From contig MU603997.1 of assembly GCA_025201845.1 (NCBI GenBank), forward strand, positions 1-64,000: DNA of 64,000 bases. Reading direction: 5' to 3'. Both the position numbers and the translations under genes were made by a program. Positions 9,557 to 64,000 of this stretch are shown one piece after another (within the stretch, counting starts at the first letter, position 1; the number at the start of each line of letters is the position of its first letter). The DNA is from Martensiomyces pterosporus. Taxonomy: Eukaryota > Kickxellomycota > Kickxellomycetes > Kickxellales > Kickxellaceae. Under the pieces are notes generated by a model. The model saw nothing but the letters and a program-made list of their open reading frames with translations. It was not told where the DNA came from and did no database searches.

Positions 9557-11215
9557 TCAATGCTGCGCATCCTTTGACACACGCCACACATGGGCGGGCA
9601 GGCGCTCAAGCTGGAGCACAGTGGGCCGGATGAAGATGTAGAATATGCACAGCGCAAACAGGATGCACGACGTAGACACGACGTAGTATCCGTCCCAGTG
9701 CACGTCACATACACCTCCGTCCTTTGTGCATTGGTCGCGGTCCTCCTGCGTGGCGCACGAGTACGAGGCAACGCCCTTATCTGGGGGCATCATGCATGTG
9801 GCACGAGTGAAGTAGTCCACCGAGCGCATGACAAAGTAGACCGGCCAAGTGCCGCCAAAGTTGCTCAGCGTGTTGAGCAGCGTCATGTAGGTTCCGCCAA
9901 TGACTGGGTCTGCGATCTGCGTGATAAACGCCGAAAAGCCGACAAACTGGATTGTGTTTGCCATGGACGCAGCCACCTTTGTGAGTAGCACGATGTAGAA
10001 GTACCCAGTGGTCAGCCCGTCCTTGGGGAAGAAGTGCACGGTGGCCATGCTCAGCGCACAGCAGACGAGGCGCACGACAAAGGCGATGCGCCATGGCTTC
10101 ATCTTGCTTGCTCCGCGGCTCCACCGCGCAGCATAGTAGCCAAAGAATATTTGCACAGGGAAGTCTATGAGCACGGTCAGCGCCATGTCCTCCTTGTGCA
10201 GGCCTCGCTCAATGAGCTTGAGCTGCGTGACGGCGTCATTGGGAATGAACCCGATTTTGGCAAAGAACAGGACCACGATGAGCTGCTTCATGTGCGGCAG
10301 CCTGCAGATGCGCCAGATGGTCTTGTAGGTGTCGACAATTCCGTAGTCGTCCTCCGACGACGAGTACTCCACTTTGACAAAGATGAGGTACAGGGTGACC
10401 AGCACGTAGGCCAGGGCCCAGAATGCCATATAAGGGCCGAGCTGCAGGAATCCAGCCTCATGCGGCGTCGAATAAATGTACTTGTTGCTGAACTCGGTGG
10501 AGTTCAGGGCCAGAAACACTGTGAACGAGAGGAAGAAGCCGCAGTTGAGGCCCACGGTCTGGCAAGTGGATGCGTAAGACAGGTTCTCCTTGGACAAAAG
10601 CGTAAGCGCCCACCCATCGACGGCGATGTCCTGCGTGGCGCTCAGAAACACGATGGCCAGAAACATGTACATGATCTCGTGGATGTTTCCCGCCGGATCA
10701 CGCATAAGACCGTCGATGTGCGACCCAAGCCACCAGAACAGCACCGCAACAAGGAGCTGAATTGGCACTATCCACGACTTTCTGCGGCCGAACTTGCGAT
10801 CGTACAAGGAGTCAACAAACGGCGACCAAAAGAGCTTGAGCGAGTACGGGTACCCAGCCAGCGAAAACAGGCCCACCTGTGCGTAGCTCAGCTTCTCCTT
10901 GAGCAGGAACGGAATGCTGCCGTGTGCCAGTCCCAGGGGGACCCCCTGCAGCCAGTATAGGGCGATCAAGAGGATGATGTTGCCAAAGTCCTTGTTGGCG
11001 TAAAACTCGCCCCACTTGCTACTGATGCGACTCAGCACGCCTTTTGGCTCGTAGGATGCTGGGTCTTCTATCTCGAACGCTTGCTTGCGCACGGGCGAGC
11101 GGCTGCGCGGAGTGCCGATGGCGATTCCTACGTCACTGTCGTCGCTACCTCCTCCATTGCTGCTGCTGATGCCGTTAGGCGTGTCTCGGCCGCGGCTCCG
11201 TGCCTTGTCTGCCAT
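9557..11215 (-). CDS. Acetyl-CoA transporter, SLC33A1/AT-1 family
   Basis: A 552-residue polytopic membrane protein close to the 549 residues of human SLC33A1. A hydrophilic Ser/Arg-rich N-terminus of about 75 residues precedes 11-12 hydrophobic spans. Family blocks are plain: LYWLQGVPLGLAHGSIPFLL, KLFWSPFVDS, the RRKSWIVP loop, and the ATQDIAVDGWALTLL segment. Animal members move acetyl-CoA into the ER lumen for protein and ganglioside O-acetylation; the substrate of fungal members is less certain. A Cys-containing lumenal loop occurs near the C-terminus. The minus-strand leader upstream probably contains an intron (11373-11524). The family call is strong; the substrate is inferred. Confidence 0.9.
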   Translation of the reverse strand: MADKARSRGRDTPNGISSSNGGGSDDSDVGIAIGTPRSRSPVRKQAFEIEDPASYEPKGVLSRISSKWGEFYANKDFGNIILLIALYWLQGVPLGLAHGSIPFLLKEKLSYAQVGLFSLAGYPYSLKLFWSPFVDSLYDRKFGRRKSWIVPIQLLVAVLFWWLGSHIDGLMRDPAGNIHEIMYMFLAIVFLSATQDIAVDGWALTLLSKENLSYASTCQTVGLNCGFFLSFTVFLALNSTEFSNKYIYSTPHEAGFLQLGPYMAFWALAYVLVTLYLIFVKVEYSSSEDDYGIVDTYKTIWRICRLPHMKQLIVVLFFAKIGFIPNDAVTQLKLIERGLHKEDMALTVLIDFPVQIFFGYYAARWSRGASKMKPWRIAFVVRLVCCALSMATVHFFPKDGLTTGYFYIVLLTKVAASMANTIQFVGFSAFITQIADPVIGGTYMTLLNTLSNFGGTWPVYFVMRSVDYFTRATCMMPPDKGVASYSCATQEDRDQCTKDGGVCDVHWDGYYVVSTSCILFALCIFYIFIRPTVLQLERLPAHVWRVSKDAQH

Positions 11216-12217: not shown

Positions 12218-15200
12218 TTAACCTGATTCCTCTTTATCGCTCTCATCATCGGTATCAGCACCAACACCAGCATCCATATCGCCACCATTAGGATTTGAGT
12301 CGTCCTCCATGCGCGATACCGGCGCAGGCCCATTGCGGCCATACCCAGAGGTGGAGCTGTACCCAGAAGCGGAGCTGTACCCAGAGGCGGAGCTGTACCC
12401 AGAAGCGGAACTGTACCCAGAAGCGGAACTGTACCCAGAAGCGGAACTGTACCCAGAAGCGGAACTGTACCCAGAAGCGGAACTGTACCCGGCGTTGCTG
12501 GCACTGTAGATGTTGTTGGAACTGGCAGTATTGGTCTCGATCGACTCAAACACCACATGCGAGAGCTTTCCACAATTTGAGCCGGTTCCATAAGCCACAT
12601 ACTCCGTGTGCGTGTGCTGGCCAGGCTTACATGGCGGAGCCGTGCCAGTCTCAACAGACTCGATCACAGCACAGGTGTTTCCGCAATCGGTTTGGACGGA
12701 TTGATAGACCGTGTGCGTGTTCTGGTTGCCCTGTGGCAGAATGTTGGTCTCGATAGACTCGATCACAGCACAGGTGCTTCCGCAATCGGTTTGGACTGAC
12801 TGGTACACTGTGTGTGCCTTCTGGCAGCCAGTATTCTGGACAGCTCCTGTTTCGATAGACTCGATCACTGCACACGTGTTTTTGCAGTCAGTCTGGATGG
12901 ACTCATACACTGTGTGCGCGCTTTGGCCGCACTTGCTGCTCTTTCCATGCTTGCCACTCTTTCCGCGCTTGCCGCTCTTTCCGCGCTTGCCACACTGTCC
13001 ACACTGTCCGCTCTTGCCCGAGGCATGGCCAGTCTCAACCGACACTAGCTCAACGCAACTGTGGCCACCGCAGCCGTCTGACTGAACCGATTCGTAGACA
13101 GTGTGCACGGGACCAGTGCATGGTGGTGCAGGACCAGTCTCAATAGACTCGATCACAACGCTAGAGGGCTTGGAGCACCCGCAGGAAGCACCCGAATCAA
13201 TCGATACAAACACACTGGCTGTAGAGTGCGGAGACCCGTTCGATGGGTTGCATCCACAAGACTTGGACGGCTTTTCGCACGATCCGCCACTGGTGCCCAC
13301 AGACACCAAGACCGTATGGCAGCTAGCAGCCTTCTTGCCACATGTGCAGTGCTTGCCGCACTTGCATCCCTTGCCGCCCATTCCGCCGCACTTGCACTTG
13401 TCGTTTCCACAGCTAGGACAACCACCGTTGTTGCTGCTGGCAGTGTTGGACTCGACTGACTGGTACACATAGTGGGTCATTGGGCCCTCGCTTGAGTATT
13501 CAGCAGAGGCGGGGCTGGCAGAGCTGCTGTAGTAGCCTTGCTCAGACGAAGTGGGACTAGCGGCGTACGAAGTGGGACTAGCAGCGTACAAAGTGGGACT
13601 AGCAGCGTACGAAGTGGGACTAGCGGAGTACTGTGCCAGGGGGGTAGACTCCTCGTCTTCGGAATCAGAGCCGCCATCGGCATTGCTGCTTGTTTGCATC
13701 TCGAACATCTCCTTGCCGCCCAAGGTTTCCACGCACTCGTCATTTCCACTAACGATCGACAGAATCGCACGTCCAAAGCAATCGCAGTCATCAGGCGGCG
13801 CAGCACACCCCTTTGAGCAGCAGTCTGCGGATTTGGAGTGGTGGCCGGTATGCGAGTGCGAGCCTTTGCTCTTGCTCTTGCTCTTGTGTGTCTTTGTGTG
13901 CTTGTGCTTGGACTTTGACGAACCGGCCTCGCATGAGTCGCTGCTGGTGGGCTCGCACGAGTCGGATGAGTCAGACGACTTGCACTTCTTGTGCTTGTGC
14001 TTGGACTTTGACGAACTGGACTCACACGAGCTAGGCTCACACGAACTGGGCTCACACGAATTGCTGCTGGTGGGCTCGCACGAGTTAGACGACTTGCACT
14101 TCTTGTGCTTTTGCTTCTTCTTCTTCTTGTGCTTCATGCATCCGGACTCGCCGTCAGAGTCACAGCAGCTACCATTGCTGGGGCAGACAGATGGCTGCTT
14201 GTGACAGGCGGATGGCTGTTTGTGGCACTCAATGGAGACGAGCACAGTGTGCGTTGGAGTTTCGGCACTGGGAGATACTGGAGGGGCAACATTGCAAGGC
14301 GGAGGCATTGAATTGCAGTACTTTGGTGGTGGTGGTGGAGGAGGCGGTGGCGGCGGTGGCTGGTAGCAGTTAGCCTTTACGTTGGCAAAGTTCTGCATGT
14401 TCGAGGACACGACTGTCTGCACAGACGTGATCACCTGGATGAACGGCATTGATTGCTGGCTCATCGAGACAGCCGACCCGGCAACAAACGCCTGGGGCAT
14501 GGGCGATGACTGCGTGATGGTAAGCGTGCTGACGTAGGTCAGCATCTGCGGGAACAAAAGCAGTTGCTCAGCAGCAGACGTCTGCTGCGGGGAACCCTGA
14601 GGCTCTTGCTGCACGGAGGCAGGGAGCGGCTGAGACTGCGTGCCATATGCCGTGGCGATGCAATATGTCTGAGTGACAGCAAGATTGGCAATGTCGCGCG
14701 AGAATGCCTCGGGCTGGTCAAAGTTGCTGGTGCCTGTGGCGTAGCTGATGACCTGGCTGAACGTCTGAGGGAACTGGTTGGGCTGAGCACTGGTGCTTTC
14801 TGCGTATCTCTGAAGGAAACTGCCGTCGGCGTTGTACTCCCCGTCCCTCGCCACCAGGTTAAGGCCGCGTGGGCGGGACCCAGTCTTGGATCTTACGGAT
14901 GTTGGGCCATTCGCCATAGCATCTATGGCCGATTTCCTGATGGCTGCTGCGTTTTCTGAGAGCAGCTCTACGGTGCTGCTCAGGTCAAGGTTTGCTGTTT
15001 CGGTGGACTGGACAGCCGAGTCGATCGATGCGTTGTGACCCACCTTCTTTGGACCGCTCTTTTTACCTGCGGCTGGTGCAGCCCTTTTGCTTGGCTTGGG
15101 GTTGACATCCAAGTTCAGCAGGCGGATCCTGTTGGAGTTGTAGAACGCATTTGGTCGAGTAGCAGCATCGTCGCCTGTAGAAGCAGATGTGGAGGCATCA

Positions 15201-16033
15201 GCATCTGTATCAGCTGCTGAGGCGGCTGTGGATGAGATGGAGTGCGATGCAGAGACCGCGGCATCTATTGACGATGGGCCGTCATCGGAGGAGACATTCG
15301 TGCCCTCACTGGCAGTACTGTCTTCATCTGCTTCGGTTTCATCCTCGGCAGTTGCACTGGTGCTTGGCGCTTGAGCGGCAGTGCTAGCGTCTTGAGTTGG
15401 CAGGAGTGGGTTGGCTGGGAATCTAACCTCGGTGTTTCCTGCTCTGAGCGGACCACATCTAACGTGGAACGGTCCCTCCTGGTAGCAAGTCAGCCCAGCG
15501 CCGCACATAAAGGCGACCTGCTCGCCGTTGATACACCTGGTGAAAGCAGCGCTGGTACCGTCAGCAGCACTGCACTTGAAGGCGCCTGGCGTGCATGTGC
15601 TGTTGCTTACGGCCACGCCACAGAAGATCCCCTGTCCATCCTGGTAGCAAACGGACTGTCCGCCACACACAAACTCCTGGGGCTCTCCGTTGATGCACCT
15701 GTAGTACTGCGCGCCCTTGCCATCTTCAAACTTGCACTTTGCTGAGCCCTCATTCGAGCAGAGCTCGGGGATCGCGCCTGCACTGATGCCAGCCGATGAG
15801 GTGGCATTTTCGTCCCGCTCGGTAGGCACCAGATCACCCACGCCGACTCCACAGTAGACGCCCTGACCCAGCTGGTAGCAGAACATGCCTTCATCGCACT
15901 GGTGTGCCTCGTGGCCGTTGATCCTGTATCCACGTCCGAGGCCGTCAGCAAGGTTGCATTTGTACTGCTGAGCACAGGCCACATGCCACAAAGCTAGCGG
16001 TGCAATGCCCAAAGAATTGAGCCAGTATTTCAT
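12218..16033 (-). CDS. Secreted, Cys-rich modular repeat protein with CBM19-like modules
   Basis: 1271 residues, not recognised as a named family. The ATG at 16033 is chosen because it opens a signal peptide (about 21 residues, ending AQQ); the frame extends 73 codons further upstream without support. In order: three Cys modules (about 24-190) with the pattern C..G....YRCINGE...CG....C.....G..C, resembling CBM19 chitin-binding modules; an Ala/Ser/Asp-rich region; a middle section with poly-Pro (12 prolines); Lys/His/Ser and CEPSS-type repeats; four YAASPTS repeats; a CxC-dense patch near 868-897 like a metallothionein; about seven degenerate HTVYxSVQTDCxxTCAVIESIETG repeats; and eight GYSSAS units before an acidic tail. 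Most likely a cell-wall or spore-surface protein (inference). TATA-like sequence lies near 16098-16118 on the minus strand. No GPI signal is evident. Confidence 0.75.
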   Translation of the reverse strand: MKYWLNSLGIAPLALWHVACAQQYKCNLADGLGRGYRINGHEAHQCDEGMFCYQLGQGVYCGVGVGDLVPTERDENATSSAGISAGAIPELCSNEGSAKCKFEDGKGAQYYRCINGEPQEFVCGGQSVCYQDGQGIFCGVAVSNSTCTPGAFKCSAADGTSAAFTRCINGEQVAFMCGAGLTCYQEGPFHVRCGPLRAGNTEVRFPANPLLPTQDASTAAQAPSTSATAEDETEADEDSTASEGTNVSSDDGPSSIDAAVSASHSISSTAASAADTDADASTSASTGDDAATRPNAFYNSNRIRLLNLDVNPKPSKRAAPAAGKKSGPKKVGHNASIDSAVQSTETANLDLSSTVELLSENAAAIRKSAIDAMANGPTSVRSKTGSRPRGLNLVARDGEYNADGSFLQRYAESTSAQPNQFPQTFSQVISYATGTSNFDQPEAFSRDIANLAVTQTYCIATAYGTQSQPLPASVQQEPQGSPQQTSAAEQLLLFPQMLTYVSTLTITQSSPMPQAFVAGSAVSMSQQSMPFIQVITSVQTVVSSNMQNFANVKANCYQPPPPPPPPPPPPKYCNSMPPPCNVAPPVSPSAETPTHTVLVSIECHKQPSACHKQPSVCPSNGSCCDSDGESGCMKHKKKKKQKHKKCKSSNSCEPTSSNSCEPSSCEPSSCESSSSKSKHKHKKCKSSDSSDSCEPTSSDSCEAGSSKSKHKHTKTHKSKSKSKGSHSHTGHHSKSADCCSKGCAAPPDDCDCFGRAILSIVSGNDECVETLGGKEMFEMQTSSNADGGSDSEDEESTPLAQYSASPTSYAASPTLYAASPTSYAASPTSSEQGYYSSSASPASAEYSSEGPMTHYVYQSVESNTASSNNGGCPSCGNDKCKCGGMGGKGCKCGKHCTCGKKAASCHTVLVSVGTSGGSCEKPSKSCGCNPSNGSPHSTASVFVSIDSGASCGCSKPSSVVIESIETGPAPPCTGPVHTVYESVQSDGCGGHSCVELVSVETGHASGKSGQCGQCGKRGKSGKRGKSGKHGKSSKCGQSAHTVYESIQTDCKNTCAVIESIETGAVQNTGCQKAHTVYQSVQTDCGSTCAVIESIETNILPQGNQNTHTVYQSVQTDCGNTCAVIESVETGTAPPCKPGQHTHTEYVAYGTGSNCGKLSHVVFESIETNTASSNNIYSASNAGYSSASGYSSASGYSSASGYSSASGYSSASGYSSASGYSSASGYSSTSGYGRNGPAPVSRMEDDSNPNGGDMDAGVGADTDDESDKEESG
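12347..12490 (-). repeat. 18-bp coding minisatellite, 8 units (GYSSAS)
   Basis: Eight head-to-tail copies of an 18-base unit (plus strand AGAAGCGGAACTGTACCC). The last five read on the plus strand are identical and the first three differ by one to four bases. Translated on the minus strand they give GYSSAS repeated, the first-encoded or last unit variants reading GYSSTS. The identity gradient points to recent unit duplication. It lies inside the repetitive surface-protein gene, near its C-terminus. Confidence 0.95.
13548..13631 (-). repeat. 21-bp coding repeat, 4 units (YAASPTS)
   Basis: Four tandem 21-base units (plus strand GAAGTGGGACTAGCGGCGTAC and near copies) encode YAASPTS, with Ser or Leu substitutions. 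It is a second, shorter minisatellite in the same gene, located upstream in the protein of the metallothionein-like patch. Confidence 0.92.
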
Positions 16034-16837: not shown

Positions 16838-18844
16838 TTACTTAGGAAGGTCAGGCATGCCAGGCCGCCATGGTGGAAGAGGATGTGCTTTAGGTGTATG
16901 CGGCGGGGCTGGTCCTCCGGCAATTGCGCTTTGCAAAGCAGCACTTGCTATTCCGGCACTGCCTCGGGACATCATCGCAGACGAAATGTTTCTCTGCAGC
17001 TGGGCATCCTGCATCTGGTCTAGCTGGTGCCTAGCGTCGCTTATCCGATGGTTCTCGATCTGAATGCTGCTGATGTCGTGGCACCCCTGTGAGCCTTCTT
17101 TTATTAGAATGCCGTCATAGCGGTTGGCCAGCCTTTTCAGCCTCGCAGCTAGACTGCCCGATGACGCAGCGACCGCCTGGTCCTCTCGCGTGATCCCCGA
17201 GTCTATCACCCCATCGAGGTACTGGAACACGTGGAACGGCAGCAGCCGCTGGATAACATCCCGTGTGCCACGAAACGGCGTGCGCCAGTCGGGGCTCCGA
17301 ACCATCTGGTGGTCCATGGCCAGTGCTTCGCGGAACCGCCGACCGACTTCGGTCTCATGCTTAATTTCGTCTAACTGCTTCCTGCGCTCAGCCAGCGGCA
17401 TGCGTGTGACGCGATTCAGGTCGGGGTGTGTGTGTTTCACAGGCCGCTGTGGATTTGCCGCGCATTCGTCTGCCTTGCCCACTGACGACGCCTCGATGTG
17501 TGGTTGCGGCCCGCCTCCTGGTGTCCACGTCGGCCGTTTCTTCACTGAGTACTTGCCAGTCTTGTTATATTTCCGCTTTTTCGTGGGTGTAGCCGCACTC
17601 GGGGTGGGTGGGTGCATGACACCATCAGTCTCGGCACCGGAAACGCTGTCTGCCGAGGGCGACACCTCGCCCGAATGCGGCCTGGACCCAGGTGTCGGCG
17701 TTCGTAGGCCGCCTGTATTTACGCCCAGGTTGGGTCCTCTGCCCGCCTTTACATCCTGCTCGCGCATGCTTGCCAGCTGGGATGCCTGCGACTTTGTCAG
17801 CGCCTTGAGAATATGCAAGAGCATATCCGGGTCCCTGGTATCCTCAGCATGTCCACCACCACCATTGGATTTCACGATGGCGCTCAGCTCCACTGGAGGG
17901 CTCAGCTTCCGCAGGATTTCAGCTGGGCCATTCAGCAGCTTCATATACGCGGATCGGTACATTTTTTCCAACGCAGCCATTTGCGGATTTGCTGCTGTTG
18001 TCGGCGCAGCTCCCGTGCTGTGTAGTGGTGCCTTTTTTGTCGGCGCTGATTGGCTTTGTTGCTGCCTTGTGGCTGTGCCAGATATTGATTTTGGTGTCGT
18101 GGGCGAGGATACAGAGGGTGATCTTGGCGCCCTTGCCGCTGTGCTCGTGTTCATATGTGAATGTATCTGTCGTGGAGCTATGCTGGGCAAGATGGGCCGT
18201 GGTCGGACTGGCTGCATCGAGTTTTGTGCGGTGCCTGCGATAGTGCCCAATGGCTGATTCCGAATTTGCTGAGCAGTCGTCGGTTTCATTGCTGGTCCAA
18301 CGCCTGCAGCAGGGCCCGGAGGTGGGGTGCCTGGCAGCCCTGGGCTAGAACTTGCACTTCTCATTATTGATTTGGGGGCGCCCTGCGGCCGCGTTCCTGG
18401 ATGCACTGCCGGTGTGTGGCTCCCATACGACTGAGTGCTGTTTCGCATACGCTGAATCTCATTCATGACTTTTGTTCGCTGCTCGGGCGTCAGCGACGAC
18501 ACTGGCATGTTTCCCGGAAGCCGGTATATGATTGTGCTTTTCTGGCGAACAACTTCAACCGTAACGCCTGCAACAACGATCCGCCGCAGCAGCTGCGTCG
18601 ACCCAGGTGCTGTGGATGGCGGAGGGCGGGGTCTGCCGGCAGGTCTGTATACCGACGCAAGTCTAGGCAGCGGCGCCGCAGCAGCTTGTGTTCCTCCATT
18701 CTTCACCACTGCTGCTGCTGGTCCACCGGGCAGCGGGCTGGACCTATGGGTACCAGCGCTGTGTGGTGTGGTTGCGCCATGCGCTACTGTACCCGCTGCT
18801 TCTTTTTCTAGTTCCGGCGTAGCTGGGTCTGGCGGGGTCGACAT
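16838..18844 (-). CDS. GLTSCR1/BICRA-domain protein, putative SWI/SNF-type remodeller subunit
   Basis: A 668-residue, mostly disordered Pro/Ser/Thr-rich protein. Near residues 80-130 a conserved block reads VVAGVTVEVVRQKSTIIYRL followed by LTPEQR. A Lys/Arg-rich TKKRKYNKTGKYSVKKR stretch is probably the nuclear signal. At about 470-560 is the GLTSCR1-type domain: helix LAERRKQLDEIKHETEVGRRF, then DHQMVRSPDWRTPFRGTRDVIQRLLPFHVFQ, the hallmark of GLTSCR1/GLTSCR1L. In mammals this region anchors the protein in the non-canonical BAF (SWI/SNF) complex with BRD9. A similar role here is inference; no bromodomain is present in this protein. The ATG at 18844 is taken, with 18856 possible. Confidence 0.75.
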   Translation of the reverse strand: MSTPPDPATPELEKEAAGTVAHGATTPHSAGTHRSSPLPGGPAAAVVKNGGTQAAAAPLPRLASVYRPAGRPRPPPSTAPGSTQLLRRIVVAGVTVEVVRQKSTIIYRLPGNMPVSSLTPEQRTKVMNEIQRMRNSTQSYGSHTPAVHPGTRPQGAPKSIMRSASSSPGLPGTPPPGPAAGVGPAMKPTTAQQIRNQPLGTIAGTAQNSMQPVRPRPILPSIAPRQIHSHMNTSTAARAPRSPSVSSPTTPKSISGTATRQQQSQSAPTKKAPLHSTGAAPTTAANPQMAALEKMYRSAYMKLLNGPAEILRKLSPPVELSAIVKSNGGGGHAEDTRDPDMLLHILKALTKSQASQLASMREQDVKAGRGPNLGVNTGGLRTPTPGSRPHSGEVSPSADSVSGAETDGVMHPPTPSAATPTKKRKYNKTGKYSVKKRPTWTPGGGPQPHIEASSVGKADECAANPQRPVKHTHPDLNRVTRMPLAERRKQLDEIKHETEVGRRFREALAMDHQMVRSPDWRTPFRGTRDVIQRLLPFHVFQYLDGVIDSGITREDQAVAASSGSLAARLKRLANRYDGILIKEGSQGCHDISSIQIENHRISDARHQLDQMQDAQLQRNISSAMMSRGSAGIASAALQSAIAGGPAPPHTPKAHPLPPWRPGMPDLPK

Positions 18845-19683
18845 CGCATTAAGCACAGGCTACAAGCGCTTCAACGATTGTTGTTAATGAGCTGTACGCG
18901 AATGCACCTTTGCCACCACGCGTTTGCTGTGTATGCGCAATTTCAAATACGGCTGGTGAATTGTCGCTGTTTCTATGGGATAGAGTCAGGGAAGGAGAAG
19001 CAGGGAAGAAGAGGAGAAACGCGTTCATTTTCTGTTGAGCGGCTGCACAGTAAATATTTGCGTTTTCTCCAAGGCGGCCGATTAAACAAGAGCATGCAAA
19101 AGGCAACTCGAAAGCGAGCAGGAAAGGCCAAGGGCCGCTGATTCCTGTGTCGCTCTTGCTGCACATACCTCCTGTAGCTGGCCAAGTTCAGCTCGCTCTC
19201 GTTCCTGTCGCTTCCGGCTTCTGCCTTTTATTTTTCGTTGCGCGTTTGAATAAAATAGAGCGGAATGCCTGGTGTTTTCTGCGCGCCTAGCCAAGGCTCC
19301 GAACAACCACTGCCAGGCACCAGAGGTGTGCTTTTTTCCCCACTGCCGTATCTGATCAGTGGATTAGCACAGGCATGATCGCCTCGTTTGGCGGCAGACG
19401 GCAGAATCACGTGGAACGGGAGAGCGGCTAATTTGAAGCGTCCGATGGCGTCTGCGCAAGAGCAGCCTTTACCAGGCCGTGCTGTTTTGTCATGTGCGAT
19501 TCGGAAGCCAGCTTTAAATGCGGCAGCTGAGTCCCCAGGAGCAGGCCACCCGCAGCTGCATTGCCTCCCTGAACAGTGCCTTTTCTTTCCCAGCCACACC
19601 CCTACACGCTTTATACGGTTATAGGACTGCGTTTGCACAAGCGAGACCCGTCTGCATTCTCTTTATCGAAGGCTGCGACCAAG
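18845..19683. other. Divergent promoter region, GLTSCR1-domain gene / thioesterase
   Basis: About 840 bases between divergent genes. No coding or RNA feature is supported. The frame of the thioesterase extends upstream to 19576 through an ATG, but that extension has no conserved character and would hide nothing targeting-like. A pyrimidine-rich TTTTCTTTCCCAGCC lies at 19580-19594. Confidence 0.45.
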
Positions 19684-60230: not shown

Positions 60231-63200
60231 CTACATGTAGGCAGCCCAGCCAATGTACATCTGAAACAGCCGTGCTGGACTGGTAGCCTCGCGAATGAGC
60301 TCGTCGACTTGGCCCTCGACCGAAAGGGGCACGAAGCCCCCATACAGTATTCCTTGCAGCTTTCGGCTGATTTTTTGCAGGCACTGCGCAGCCTGCTCGT
60401 TGGGCTGTCCGGTGTCCTTGCCTGACGCTGCTCGGCTAGACCGGGTTGCGCGCTTGCTCCACTCGACGAGCGGGTCATGGAGAAACGCCTCCAGCACCGA
60501 CATCAGGGCATCCCTGTGCTCGCGCAGGAGCCCCAGCGTCATCTCGCATGTCCTCCTGAATGTGCCCTCATACCCCGTGACGCCCATTGCATCCACCATG
60601 TTGTGCGTCAGGCGGAACGGCACCTTCTCTGGCTTTTCCAGCGTCATTCCCTTTTCAAACAGGCAGTTGAAATCGACGTGGACAACTCCGCCGGTGCTCT
60701 CGTCCAGCAGAATGTTCTCACAGTGCCGGTCGCCCAGCCCGAGCATGTGGCCCACCATGGACATCACAGCTGCAGTGCGGGTGAAGTTTGTGCGGCTGGC
60801 GAGCCAGCGCGCTGGGTCCGGGAACGACTGCAGGAACCACTCGTGCAGAACCGACGGGAAGAGTGGCAGCAGGGTGTTTGTAAACAGCTCCTCATGCGAC
60901 GGGCTGTTCTTGTCCAGAATCGACTTCACTTGTGTCATCGAGATGGCGACTCCGTGCGCCTTGTAGAGACTCAGCAGGACATGTCTGATGCCTGTTGTTG
61001 GCCCAACCCACTGGATCAGGCCGCACTCCTCGTTCAGCGGCACCACGGCGTATGTGCGGATGTGCAGCCCGCGCTTGTGCGTCTGCGAGTTTGCGCTCAG
61101 CAGCTGGTTGATCATCGAGTTGAACTCCATCAAGCGCGCATCCTTGCGCAGGTCGTCCTTCGGCTTGCACAGGAAGCGGTAGCTGCGCCCGTCGCTGCCA
61201 ATGATGACGATCTTTTTGGGCCGCTGGAGCGAGCGCATAACCTCGATTTCGTCGGAAAAGCTGCTGATCGTGGGCAGGTCGCCCGAGAATGGCTGGTGCA
61301 GCATCGCGCGCTGGGAGGCAGTGTGTGCATTGCCGCCCACCTCTGCGCTTCCCACAGAGCCGCTCCACAGAGACGTCAGTGCTAGCTCGTACTCGGCGCT
61401 GCTTGCCGTGTCTGGGAGCGATGGCACTAGGCTGCTTTGCAGCGGGATGACAATGTCAAGAGGAGTGCTCCTGGCCAGTGCCTTGAAGTCCTTGGCCATG
61501 TGCATCGCTGTGGCTGTGCGGCCCGGAGGCACAGCGTTGCACAGGCCCAGCAGCAAATCGGTCAGCTTCGACGCCTGCTGAATGAGCCCGCCGACGCCCC
61601 TTGCGCGGCTTCGGCCGCCAGAGTTGCCCATTGCCTCGGGCCCGTGTGCAGCGCGCGCTTTGGCCAGAATCACGTTGCATCTCTCTGAGCGCGCAGCATA
61701 CGTTGATCGCTGGACCCCCATGAGCTGCCACAGCGTCTGCTGCGGGTACAGCTCAAGAACGCTCAGGATGATGCTCTCCAGCACAGAAAACACCTCCTCG
61801 TTCGGGTGGCAGATGCGCGACACCAGCTGCGACAGGACCACAAGGAAGCTGTATGCCGGCAGGCGCCTTGCCATGTTGCTCATCACCCTGTTTGTCGTCT
61901 TAAACCTCTCGACCAAGCGGGTGTTCTTGGCATCCGCGGGGTTGAGGATGTTTGCGCCAAAGTCGAGCCAGACAGTCAGCAGGCGCGGCAATGCCTGAAA
62001 TAGGAACCGCGAGCTGTAAATAACGGTGCGGCTGTAGTGCCTGATCACATAGTATTGCAGCGAGGCCAGCTGCAGGTTGCGGTGGTCGTGCTGAGCCTTT
62101 GACGTGTGCGACGAGTCCTTTTCGCTCAAAGTCGTAAACAGGCTGTCGTACAGGCGGCCCTGAGCATAGTGGACCCTGTCGCTCTCTTGAGTGCGCATAA
62201 TTCGGTCGTAGCGCGCAAGCAGCACCGATGTGCTGACTGCGTTGGTCGATTCCTGCCAGCGCGATAGGAGCAGCGACGCCTTAGTGAACGCCGCCTTGGC
62301 CTCCTCGATTTCCTGGGTGAGCTGGAGCGGATCGTGGGCGCCCTTGTCATGCGTATCCGAACCCAGCGACTGCACAGCAACCCCACCAGTGAATGTGGAG
62401 CTCACGCACTGCTCGTTGTCGCCTCGTATCTTCAGCTTCTCCGACAGGCAGTCGACAACACGGCCCATCTCCGACATGGCGTCGGCCGAGTGGCCCTCAT
62501 CCCACAGAATCTGGGCGCGCTCTGCCTGCAGCGAGGCAAGCAGCGCAGCCGACGCTGGGCTGGCGAGCTCGGCATGCATCAGAATGCCAAGCGCGGTTGA
62601 GCGGAACCCAGCAAGTCGAGCCAGCTGCGCTGCCTGCAAGTGCGACAGCGCTGTTTGCCGGCTGATTGTCTCTGCACATGCCGCGTAGTTTTCCTTGGAG
62701 GTGCTCCCGGCACAGCTGTCAAGCAGCATGCTGTACAGACGCGTGTGGAGCGCCAGCACTGGCTCTTGTACGTCGTATATTGGCGGGAGACAGGCCATGC
62801 GAGCGCCCCACTGCTCCGCTAGGCTGCAGAGTGAGCTGGGAGAGATGGCGGATGCACTGTTTTCCTTGCCCCCAGAGATATCCACATGTCTGGCAAGCAG
62901 CCCGATGTCTCCCAGCATGTGCGTGTGGATATCGATGGGTGCAGCGCTTGCGCCAGACACCGAGTGCACATTGCCAGTTGCCAGTCTGCGCAGCGTGCTG
63001 CTCTCGGCAATGTCGCTGCCTGCACTCTGGAACGCCAGACTAACCAAATCAACAGTGGATAGGCTAGACAGGCCACTGCCGGCTTGCGTGTCGCGCGCTA
63101 CGTAGGCACTCAGAGGTAGTGGCAGCGACACGCTGCCAATGTCGCTATGGTGGTTGTTGATGTGCGCCAAAAGCACGCTGGTGAGGGAGTCAAAGGAGCA

Positions 63201-64000
63201 TGTGGTCTGAAGATCGCGGCCAGCAGCGGCTACTGGGCTGCTTGTGCAAATGGCTGCCTCTACCCAGTCCCATTTCCCGAGTCTCCAGGCAGCAGCAAAG
63301 CAGGCTGTGTTGAGCTGTTTCTCGTCATCGCTCTGAGGATGCAGCTTGTACAAGTCTCTGGATGCTGTCCAGGCACCCTCCCACTGCCCCATGCTCTGTA
63401 GGCAGCGGATCCACCCCTTCTGGTACTCCTCGCTCCCAGGCTGCGACCGAAGCAGCGACTCGTGGCCAATCAGTGCGTGGGACCAGTTGCCCTCGATTTC
63501 GTGCTTCAGGATCGATAGCTTGTGGTCCGCTTGCTTACGACACGATGCAGCGCCTGCCACTCCATCGACGTCACCCGTGTTGAAATAGAGCTCCTGGATT
63601 CTTGCCACTGTCGAGTCATCCACGCTGCGGAACAGCGTTGGGTACTTGCCAAAGGCATCCTCGCGTAGCGACAGCTCTGTGTGCAGTATGGCGCGCTCAA
63701 ACTGGCCGCACGAGTTGGCAGCCTCAGCGATCATTGAATGCGGGACCGATTCGACCAGCGAGAGCAGCGCTTGCTCTTCGGGCGTGGCGCTGGGCATCTT
63801 TGAGTCCTTTCGGCTGCTGCGCTTGCTTGCCATTCTAGCTGCCTGCTGGGTGCGAACGTTGCTGCTCAGCATATCTAGCAAGTCAATCACTGCCTCCTTG
63901 CACAGCCGCCATTGATCTATGGGCATTCTCACCAGCTCAGAGTCGCTGGATAGCACCGCTCGAATCTCGTCTGAAACCACGCTTATACCGGCGCTGCTCG
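60231..64000 (-). CDS. MEC1: ATR/Mec1-type PI3K-like checkpoint kinase, C-terminal part
   Basis: Partial: the frame is open to the right edge, so the 5' part lies outside the window; at least 1256 residues are present. Most is FAT-type helical repeat (for example QQTLWQLMGVQRSTYAARSERCNVIL). The kinase domain has PKKIVIIGSDGRSYRFLCKPKDDLRKDARLMEFNSMINQLL (ATP-binding lobe), the catalytic loop GDRHCENILLDESTGGVVHVDFNCLFEKG at about 60650-60745, and VPFRLTHNMVDAMGVTGYEGTFRR. The last 32 residues are a FATC domain ending GWAAYM. ATR/Mec1/Rad3 signals single-stranded DNA and stalled forks. DFN in place of DFG is normal for this family. No introns are visible. Confidence 0.95.
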   Translation of the reverse strand, partial: SSAGISVVSDEIRAVLSSDSELVRMPIDQWRLCKEAVIDLLDMLSSNVRTQQAARMASKRSSRKDSKMPSATPEEQALLSLVESVPHSMIAEAANSCGQFERAILHTELSLREDAFGKYPTLFRSVDDSTVARIQELYFNTGDVDGVAGAASCRKQADHKLSILKHEIEGNWSHALIGHESLLRSQPGSEEYQKGWIRCLQSMGQWEGAWTASRDLYKLHPQSDDEKQLNTACFAAAWRLGKWDWVEAAICTSSPVAAAGRDLQTTCSFDSLTSVLLAHINNHHSDIGSVSLPLPLSAYVARDTQAGSGLSSLSTVDLVSLAFQSAGSDIAESSTLRRLATGNVHSVSGASAAPIDIHTHMLGDIGLLARHVDISGGKENSASAISPSSLCSLAEQWGARMACLPPIYDVQEPVLALHTRLYSMLLDSCAGSTSKENYAACAETISRQTALSHLQAAQLARLAGFRSTALGILMHAELASPASAALLASLQAERAQILWDEGHSADAMSEMGRVVDCLSEKLKIRGDNEQCVSSTFTGGVAVQSLGSDTHDKGAHDPLQLTQEIEEAKAAFTKASLLLSRWQESTNAVSTSVLLARYDRIMRTQESDRVHYAQGRLYDSLFTTLSEKDSSHTSKAQHDHRNLQLASLQYYVIRHYSRTVIYSSRFLFQALPRLLTVWLDFGANILNPADAKNTRLVERFKTTNRVMSNMARRLPAYSFLVVLSQLVSRICHPNEEVFSVLESIILSVLELYPQQTLWQLMGVQRSTYAARSERCNVILAKARAAHGPEAMGNSGGRSRARGVGGLIQQASKLTDLLLGLCNAVPPGRTATAMHMAKDFKALARSTPLDIVIPLQSSLVPSLPDTASSAEYELALTSLWSGSVGSAEVGGNAHTASQRAMLHQPFSGDLPTISSFSDEIEVMRSLQRPKKIVIIGSDGRSYRFLCKPKDDLRKDARLMEFNSMINQLLSANSQTHKRGLHIRTYAVVPLNEECGLIQWVGPTTGIRHVLLSLYKAHGVAISMTQVKSILDKNSPSHEELFTNTLLPLFPSVLHEWFLQSFPDPARWLASRTNFTRTAAVMSMVGHMLGLGDRHCENILLDESTGGVVHVDFNCLFEKGMTLEKPEKVPFRLTHNMVDAMGVTGYEGTFRRTCEMTLGLLREHRDALMSVLEAFLHDPLVEWSKRATRSSRAASGKDTGQPNEQAAQCLQKISRKLQGILYGGFVPLSVEGQVDELIREATSPARLFQMYIGWAAYM

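What the first reader, a model, noticed from the sequence alone, without database searches (positions are those of the whole stretch)
12218..16033. Large secreted mosaic protein combining CBM19-like modules, metal-binding patch and several minisatellite domains
I know no family with this order: three chitin-binding-like Cys modules, poly-Pro, Lys/His and CEPSS repeats, YAASPTS repeats, CxC-dense patch, about seven HTVYxSVQTD...AVIESIETG units, and GYSSAS units. It is likely a surface adhesin or wall protein under strong repeat turnover, possibly lineage-specific.
Basis: partly seen in the sequence, partly recalled or inferred. Interest (0 to 1): 0.75.

Follow-up and report, generated by a model that had tools for sequence, protein, structure and literature searches.

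The report
Unnamed secreted wall-like protein of Coemansia
This is a real, large, apparently secreted fungal protein, one of an unnamed family so far found only in the genus Coemansia, built from chitin-binding-type modules, metal-binding-type stretches and a recurring strand-like motif, and it may be part of the cell or spore wall.

Summary
It is not a one-off: 12 other proteins found here, all labelled Coemansia and 'hypothetical', share its parts in the same order as far as their models reach (two partial models lack the Cys modules). The C. erecta model is fused to the GLTSCR1 gene that lies next door in the window. No Pfam or NCBIfam family covers it. Modules b and c resemble this genome's own CBM19 domains in profile and cysteine spacing, and the modelled fold resembles peritrophin-A/CBM14; the usual Trp is missing, so chitin binding is unproven. 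The minisatellites differ between species, which supports turnover. No GPI tail or membrane segment shows in the window protein. Best reading: a secreted, non-enzymatic matrix protein docked on chitin, with a metal- and disulfide-cross-linkable C-terminal half. It would work like, without kinship to, animal chitin/His-rich hard-part proteins. Function is inferred. It is an undescribed family made of known kinds of parts.

The parts
12218..16033 (-). whole coding sequence, single frame, 1271 aa, stop included
15968..16033 (-). signal-peptide-like N-terminus, aa 1-22 (cut expected near ACA-QQ)
   Evidence: hydropathy (best 11-mer 1.68; 2.39-2.69 in relatives with an N-terminus) and conserved end before KC; no predictor run, cut site inferred
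15842..15964 (-). module a, aa 24-64, reduced CBM19-like module with four Cys
   Evidence: in this protein the profile covers only positions 30-47
15617..15760 (-). module b, aa 92-139, six-Cys CBM19-like module (spacing 7-12-9-5-8)
   Evidence: Pfam CBM_14 below cut-off
15452..15595 (-). module c, aa 147-194, six-Cys CBM19-like module (spacing 6-12-9-5-9)
   Evidence: mean identity 0.74 in 8 proteins
14255..15451 (-). low-complexity linker, aa 195-593, Ser/Ala/Asp then Pro/Gln rich, with a poly-Pro run near its end
   Evidence: mean identity 0.39 in two stretches, many gaps
14222..14254 (-). conserved 'anchor' copy of the strand motif, THTVLVSIECH, aa 594-604
   Evidence: mean identity 0.76, no gaps in 8 rows
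13790..14221 (-). Lys/His/Cys/Ser-rich stretch with KHKHKK and SCEPS repeats, aa 605-748
13664..13789 (-). short conserved CFGRA[VI]xS segment, aa 749-790
   Evidence: (11 of 13)
13546..13631 (-). YAASPTS minisatellite, 21-bp unit, 4.1 copies
13340..13396 (-). metallothionein-like patch CKCGGMGGKGCKCGKHCTC, aa 880-898
   Evidence: no Pfam family
12524..13477 (-). strand-repeat region with THTVYESVE-type units, aa 853-1170
12927..13015 (-). GKRGKS array; aa 1006-1032 are nine uninterrupted Gly-X-Y triplets without Pro, collagen-like, seen in this protein only
   Evidence: Pfam Collagen below cut-off
12638..12916 (-). three clean doublets HTVY[EQ]S[IV]QTDC...CAVIES[IV]ET, aa 1040-1132
12342..12490 (-). 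GYSSAS minisatellite, 18-bp unit, 8.3 copies
12221..12316 (-). acidic hydrophilic C-terminal tail, aa 1240-1271; no GPI-type hydrophobic end

Best explanation
A secreted, non-enzymatic matrix protein of the Coemansia cell or spore wall. Shown by sequence: uninterrupted gene, signal-peptide-like start, CBM19-like modules, conserved order of parts, no GPI-like tail or transmembrane segment in the window protein. Inferred: the N-terminal modules dock the protein on chitin. The Pro/Tyr/Gln/Ser-rich linker acts as a flexible spacer whose length drifts by minisatellite expansion. The Lys/His/Cys stretch and CxC patch bind divalent or copper-type metal. The THTVYESVE[TS]xC units pair as short beta-strands, most with a Cys just after the strand, so that neighbouring chains can be joined by sheet contacts, disulfides and metal. 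The result would be a cross-linked, chitin-anchored layer.
For: Domain order shared with Coemansia relatives, all 'hypothetical'. The modules (mean identity 0.71, 0.59, 0.74) are conserved while the linker and tail drift (0.39, 0.34). CBM19 profile match in 8 of 8 N-termini, 23.3-42.5 bits against at most 10.2 in 800 shuffles; cysteine spacing equal or near to that of the three own-genome CBM19 domains measured. The top four of 17 fold rows are peritrophin-A/CBM14 proteins. No transmembrane segment or GPI-like end in the window protein. KH-type runs in 12 of 13 proteins and a CxC patch in 8 of 13 (together). 103 strand units, Cys at position +10 in 71, drawn as paired strands in the model.
Confidence: 0.45

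Rival explanations
1. A secreted metal scavenger or buffer. The His/Cys segments hold Zn or Cu outside the cell and the modules keep it on the wall, in the manner of a zincophore or extracellular metallothionein.
For: CxC patch in 8 of 13 (together) and KH-type runs in 12 of 13 proteins.
Against: The two immediate neighbours tested are an acetyl-CoA transporter family gene and a GLTSCR1 gene, no metal transporter. No Pfam metallothionein match. P0003 lacks the patch and the window protein has no KH-type run, so metal sites are not strictly kept. The strand repeats are left unexplained.
Confidence: 0.2
2. A surface adhesin whose repeats extend and vary the cell surface.
For: Long Ser/Thr-rich protein with fast-changing minisatellites and repeats drawn as beta strands.
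Against: No GPI-like tail or transmembrane segment in the window protein; no adhesin domain over cut-off (the nearest, an elastin-binding model on P0002 at E 0.27, is far below its cut-off).
Confidence: 0.15
3. A secreted shield or lectin-like binder. The modules bind something other than own-wall chitin, for example exposed chitin fragments or polyphenols, as the three-module protein EHEP binds tannin.
Confidence: 0.12
4. Low-complexity sequence under little constraint, attached to a functional CBM19-like head.
For: Linker, repeats and tail diverge and differ in length; different minisatellites in different species; the collagen-like run is in the window protein only.
Against: The order of parts, the anchor copy (0.76 identity, no gaps in 8 rows), the CFGRA segment and the CxC patch persist. 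The three window doublets differ from each other by 9, 10 and 6 synonymous against 7, 6 and 5 non-synonymous codons of 26, so they are not young copies; that ratio alone shows only mild constraint.
Confidence: 0.08

Closest known systems
CBM19 (Pfam CBM_19, PF03427) domains of other secreted proteins in the same genome
   Same: Six-Cys spacing 7-12-9-5-8 in module b and 6-12-9-5-9 in module c, against 7-12-9-5-8, 7-12-9-5-8 and 9-11-9-5-8 in the three own-genome domains measured; profile match in 8 of 8 N-termini.
   Different: Below Pfam detection, without the usual Trp, three copies on a long protein with no enzyme domain found; module a has only four Cys.
Peritrophin-A/CBM14 proteins, especially EHEP of Aplysia (three such domains)
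   Different: Different Cys spacing (EHEP: C-x15-C-x5-C-x9-C-x12-C-x5-9-C); Pfam CBM_14 match below cut-off.
RTMP1 of chiton radular teeth; squid-beak chitin-binding and His-rich proteins
   Same: Works-like analogy: Gly/Ser-rich repeats, a chitin-binding-like region and a His-rich region in one protein (RTMP1; PMC6351634, passages); chitin-binding plus His-rich protein families in beaks (PMC9716703, one passage).
   Different: Animals; no sequence relation was tested; the passages seen do not mention Cys modules, a CxC patch or strand repeats of this kind.
Fungal copper metallothioneins
   Same: CxC-rich patch (resemblance recalled, not a test).
   Different: Embedded in a long secreted-type protein; no Pfam metallothionein match.

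Membership tests
CBM19 (Pfam PF03427) | Pfam CBM_19 profile match over its cut-off | tested here: not met
   No CBM_19 match for the protein, its N-terminus or single modules; the gene is not among the 12 own-genome CBM_19 matches.
CBM19 (Pfam PF03427) | Six-Cys spacing of the family as seen in this genome | tested here: met
   Modules b and c, not module a; compared with 3 own-genome domains.
CBM19 (Pfam PF03427) | Relation to accepted CBM19 domains through a closer profile | tested here: met
   Profile of 7 own-genome domains over Pfam's cut-off: 23.3-42.5 bits on 8 of 8 N-termini, 800 shuffles at most 10.2. In P0001, P0003 and P0005 module a matches only the last third of the profile.
CBM19 (Pfam PF03427) | Chitin binding | not testable with these tools
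   Needs a pull-down; the usual Trp is missing.
CBM14 / peritrophin-A | Pfam CBM_14 match over cut-off | tested here: not met
   19.2 bits against 22.1 for the three-module stretch; 17.4 and 14.9 for modules b and c; 1 of 8 members of alignment A2 listed.
CBM14 / peritrophin-A | Fold | tested here: inconclusive
Metallothionein | Family profile match | tested here: inconclusive
   No Pfam match of the 38-aa patch; short Cys-rich families are poorly caught by profiles.
Collagen | Long Gly-X-Y run, Pfam Collagen over cut-off | tested here: not met
   Nine triplets, no Pro; 11.8 and 17 bits against 27.2.
GPI-anchored fungal adhesins / wall proteins | C-terminal GPI signal (hydrophobic tail) | tested here: not met
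   Last 30 residues mean hydropathy -1.6, acidic.
Family seen here (Coemansia secreted repeat protein) | N-terminal modules, anchor THTV copy, KH/Cys stretch, CFGRA segment, THTVYESVE repeats in this order | tested here: met
   the window's KH/Cys stretch is Lys-rich without a KH-type run. P0007, P0008 and P0011-P0013 are partial models and cannot show all parts.

The most novel reading that the evidence does not exclude
Coemansia fungi have a sclerotised wall layer of a kind not described in fungi as far as I know: a single protein that anchors to chitin, binds metal through His and Cys, and self-assembles through a beta-strand repeat (19 residues apart in most relatives, doublets in the window protein) into a disulfide- and metal-cross-linked sheet, a fungal counterpart reached independently of squid-beak and tooth matrices.
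Probability: 0.13. Interest if true: 0.75.

Novelty: new variant of a known kind. Interest (0 to 1): 0.42.

Why it matters
[quoted passage not shown] The eight paper searches made here turned up nothing that names this protein. It gives a concrete, conserved candidate for a genus-specific wall protein, a defined repeat that can be made as a peptide and tested for assembly and metal binding, and a case where CBM19-type modules sit on a protein without an enzyme domain. If the cross-linking reading is right, it would be a fungal analogue of animal chitin/metal hard parts.

Tried and rejected
Pfam on the whole protein and pieces, and NCBIfam on P0001, P0002 and P0005: only matches below cut-off (Collagen, CBM_14, Methanobactin, elastin-binding EbpS, nickel/cobalt efflux and others), apart from GLTSCR1 on the fused P0003. 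The Collagen match is on a real run of nine Gly-X-Y triplets, but it has no Pro, is far below cut-off and is in no other family member, so collagen membership was rejected. Sequence search of solved structures: nothing meaningful. Structure of the repeat region: model too poor (pLDDT 42) and its Foldseek rows not significant; the top row, the functional amyloid FapC at E 1.8, is not used as evidence. A second copy of the repeat region in the same genome: none found beyond the gene itself. Tree of 10 N-termini: three of seven inner branches well supported, but the window protein and C. spiralis are on long branches, so the place of the window species is unsure. The species was not settled; Coemansia or a close relative is inferred from the homologues and the neighbouring gene.

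Papers: ten searches. Eight bear on whether the protein or its setting is in print (name no lineage). No listed title or abstract start describes this protein; two searches listed 15 of 30 and 15 of 22 papers. Only listings were read there, apart from passages of PMC10386755. Searches looked for the analogues. No paper was read whole.

Limits and results against: the protein search missed P0003, a relative already found, and searches scored only the about 8000 candidates sharing most words, so absence outside Coemansia is not proof. The first shuffle control (300 shuffles, best 6.2) took the wrong stretch for P0003; it was redone with 800 shuffles on the right stretches (best 10.2). P0010 has a hydrophobic stretch over the transmembrane threshold at 485-489; it is the array that looks frame-shifted. 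Rows dropped: the conservation table used 8 of 13 proteins, leaving out the partial P0007, P0008, P0011, P0012 and P0013; the tree used 10 of 13; the profile test used 8 of 13. In the full-length scan with a 5-bit floor module a drops out in the window protein, and P0011, P0012 and P0013 show no module; P0011 lacks the N-terminus, while P0012 and P0013 begin with a signal-like sequence, so true loss or gene-model error is open. One of the 12 own-genome CBM_19 matches (L015) was not looked at. The ends of P0004 and P0006 leave the repeat pattern and look like broken models.
Full report
What is there. Window 16033-12218 on the minus strand is a single open frame of 1271 aa starting at the first in-frame ATG. 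The window lies in a 17.4 Mb, 216-contig genome. The gene stands between an acetyl-CoA transporter family gene (Acatn, 9557-11215) and a GLTSCR1-domain gene (16838-18856).

It is a family. Three protein searches gave 5 of 7990 scored candidates, 6 of 288 including the query and 12 of 7991. Together these are 12 distinct proteins besides the window's, all labelled Coemansia (C. erecta, spiralis, furcata, asiatica, aciculifera, biformis and six numbered strains) and all 'hypothetical' at NCBI. The C. erecta model (P0003) begins with a stretch 47% identical over 131 residues to the GLTSCR1 gene beside the window gene, and Pfam finds GLTSCR1 in both. The simplest reading is a gene-model merge of two adjacent genes, hence the same neighbourhood; a true fusion is not excluded. 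The search has known misses (P0003), so restriction to Coemansia is the current picture, not proof.

The repeat. A strict pattern finds 103 units in 13 proteins, 1 to 19 per protein and 8 in the window's. The consensus is T-H-T-V-Y-E-S-V-E-[TS]-x-C: His 103 (fixed by the pattern), Thr before it 83, Val 86, Ser 85, Glu 89, and Cys at +10 in 71. The commonest spacing is 19 residues (29 of 90; next 20, 6 times). The three clean doublets are 73-79% identical in DNA, with 9, 10 and 6 synonymous against 7, 6 and 5 non-synonymous codon differences of 26, so they look older than the GYSSAS minisatellite (18-bp unit, 96% match). AlphaFold draws the units as paired strands, at low confidence.

Other conserved parts. 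A KH-type run occurs in 12 of 13 proteins, not in the window's, which has a more Lys-rich version. A C[FC]GRA[VI]xS segment occurs in 11 of 13; the two without it, P0008 and P0012, end before it. A CxC patch at the place of the window's occurs in 8 of 13 by the two patterns taken together; P0003 lacks it, and P0007, P0008, P0012 and P0013 stop at or before it. Some members have a further CxC-like stretch just before the CFGRA segment (P0002, P0004, P0007, P0011). Among 8 proteins that reach through most parts, mean pairwise identity is 0.71, 0.59 and 0.74 for the three modules, 0.76 for the anchor copy, 0.56 for the CFGRA segment and for the CxC patch (21 pairs), 0.49 for the KH/Cys stretch, 0.46 for the signal-like start, 0.45 for the repeat region, 0.39 for the two linker stretches and 0.34 for the tail (10 pairs).

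Turnover. Short arrays differ from species to species: ASPTSYA and GYSSAS in the window, GYQSQPG in C. spiralis, YGSQGP in RSA 486, YxASSNSPY in C. furcata, YSAQPS-type in RSA 2050. The window protein alone also has nine Gly-X-Y triplets. Several arrays are rich in Tyr with Ser, Gln and Gly, which suggests that a Tyr-rich spacer is re-made rather than a given array kept; this is an impression, not a test.

How it most likely works. It has a signal-like start, no GPI-like tail or transmembrane segment and no enzyme domain found by Pfam. Docking by the modules and cross-linking by Cys, His/Cys-metal and strand pairing explains the parts together; none of these activities has been measured. The closest working analogies are animal hard-part proteins: RTMP1 of chiton teeth (Gly/Ser repeats, chitin-binding-like region and His-rich region in one chain; PMC6351634, passages) and squid-beak chitin-binding and His-rich proteins (PMC9716703, one passage). 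This is analogy, not kinship.

Verdict. It is an undescribed family of known kinds of parts in a new arrangement.

Noticed in passing
P0010 (C. asiatica), residues 486-550: An ALAMALK array stands where P0009 has YGSQG repeats; it reads like the same minisatellite in a shifted frame, with the usual frame back by CECGHSSTHTVYVS. Either paired frameshifts in the array or an assembly error.
   Followed up: no
P0012 and P0013 N-termini: These two Coemansia gene models go from a signal-like start almost directly to the linker, without the six-Cys modules; true loss or wrong gene model.
   Followed up: no
window 12936-13018, minus strand (aa 1006-1032): Nine uninterrupted Gly-X-Y triplets without Pro, a small collagen-like insert found in none of the 12 relatives.
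   Followed up: partly
L002, minus strand 1099-1740 (own genome contig C7): A short 213-aa protein with a signal-like start and three Trp-containing CBM19-like modules and little else; a simple counterpart of the window protein's head.
   Followed up: partly
L004, L005, L011 (own genome): Frames ending in near-identical CBM19 domains begin HMEF/HMTF/HREM after a signal-like stretch, as AA11-type lytic monooxygenases do (recalled, not tested); the domain may be shared by recent duplication among secreted enzymes.
   Followed up: no
window 60231-63980: Frame with ATR-type HEAT, FAT, PI3/PI4-kinase and FATC domains, an ATR-like checkpoint kinase; ordinary.
   Followed up: no
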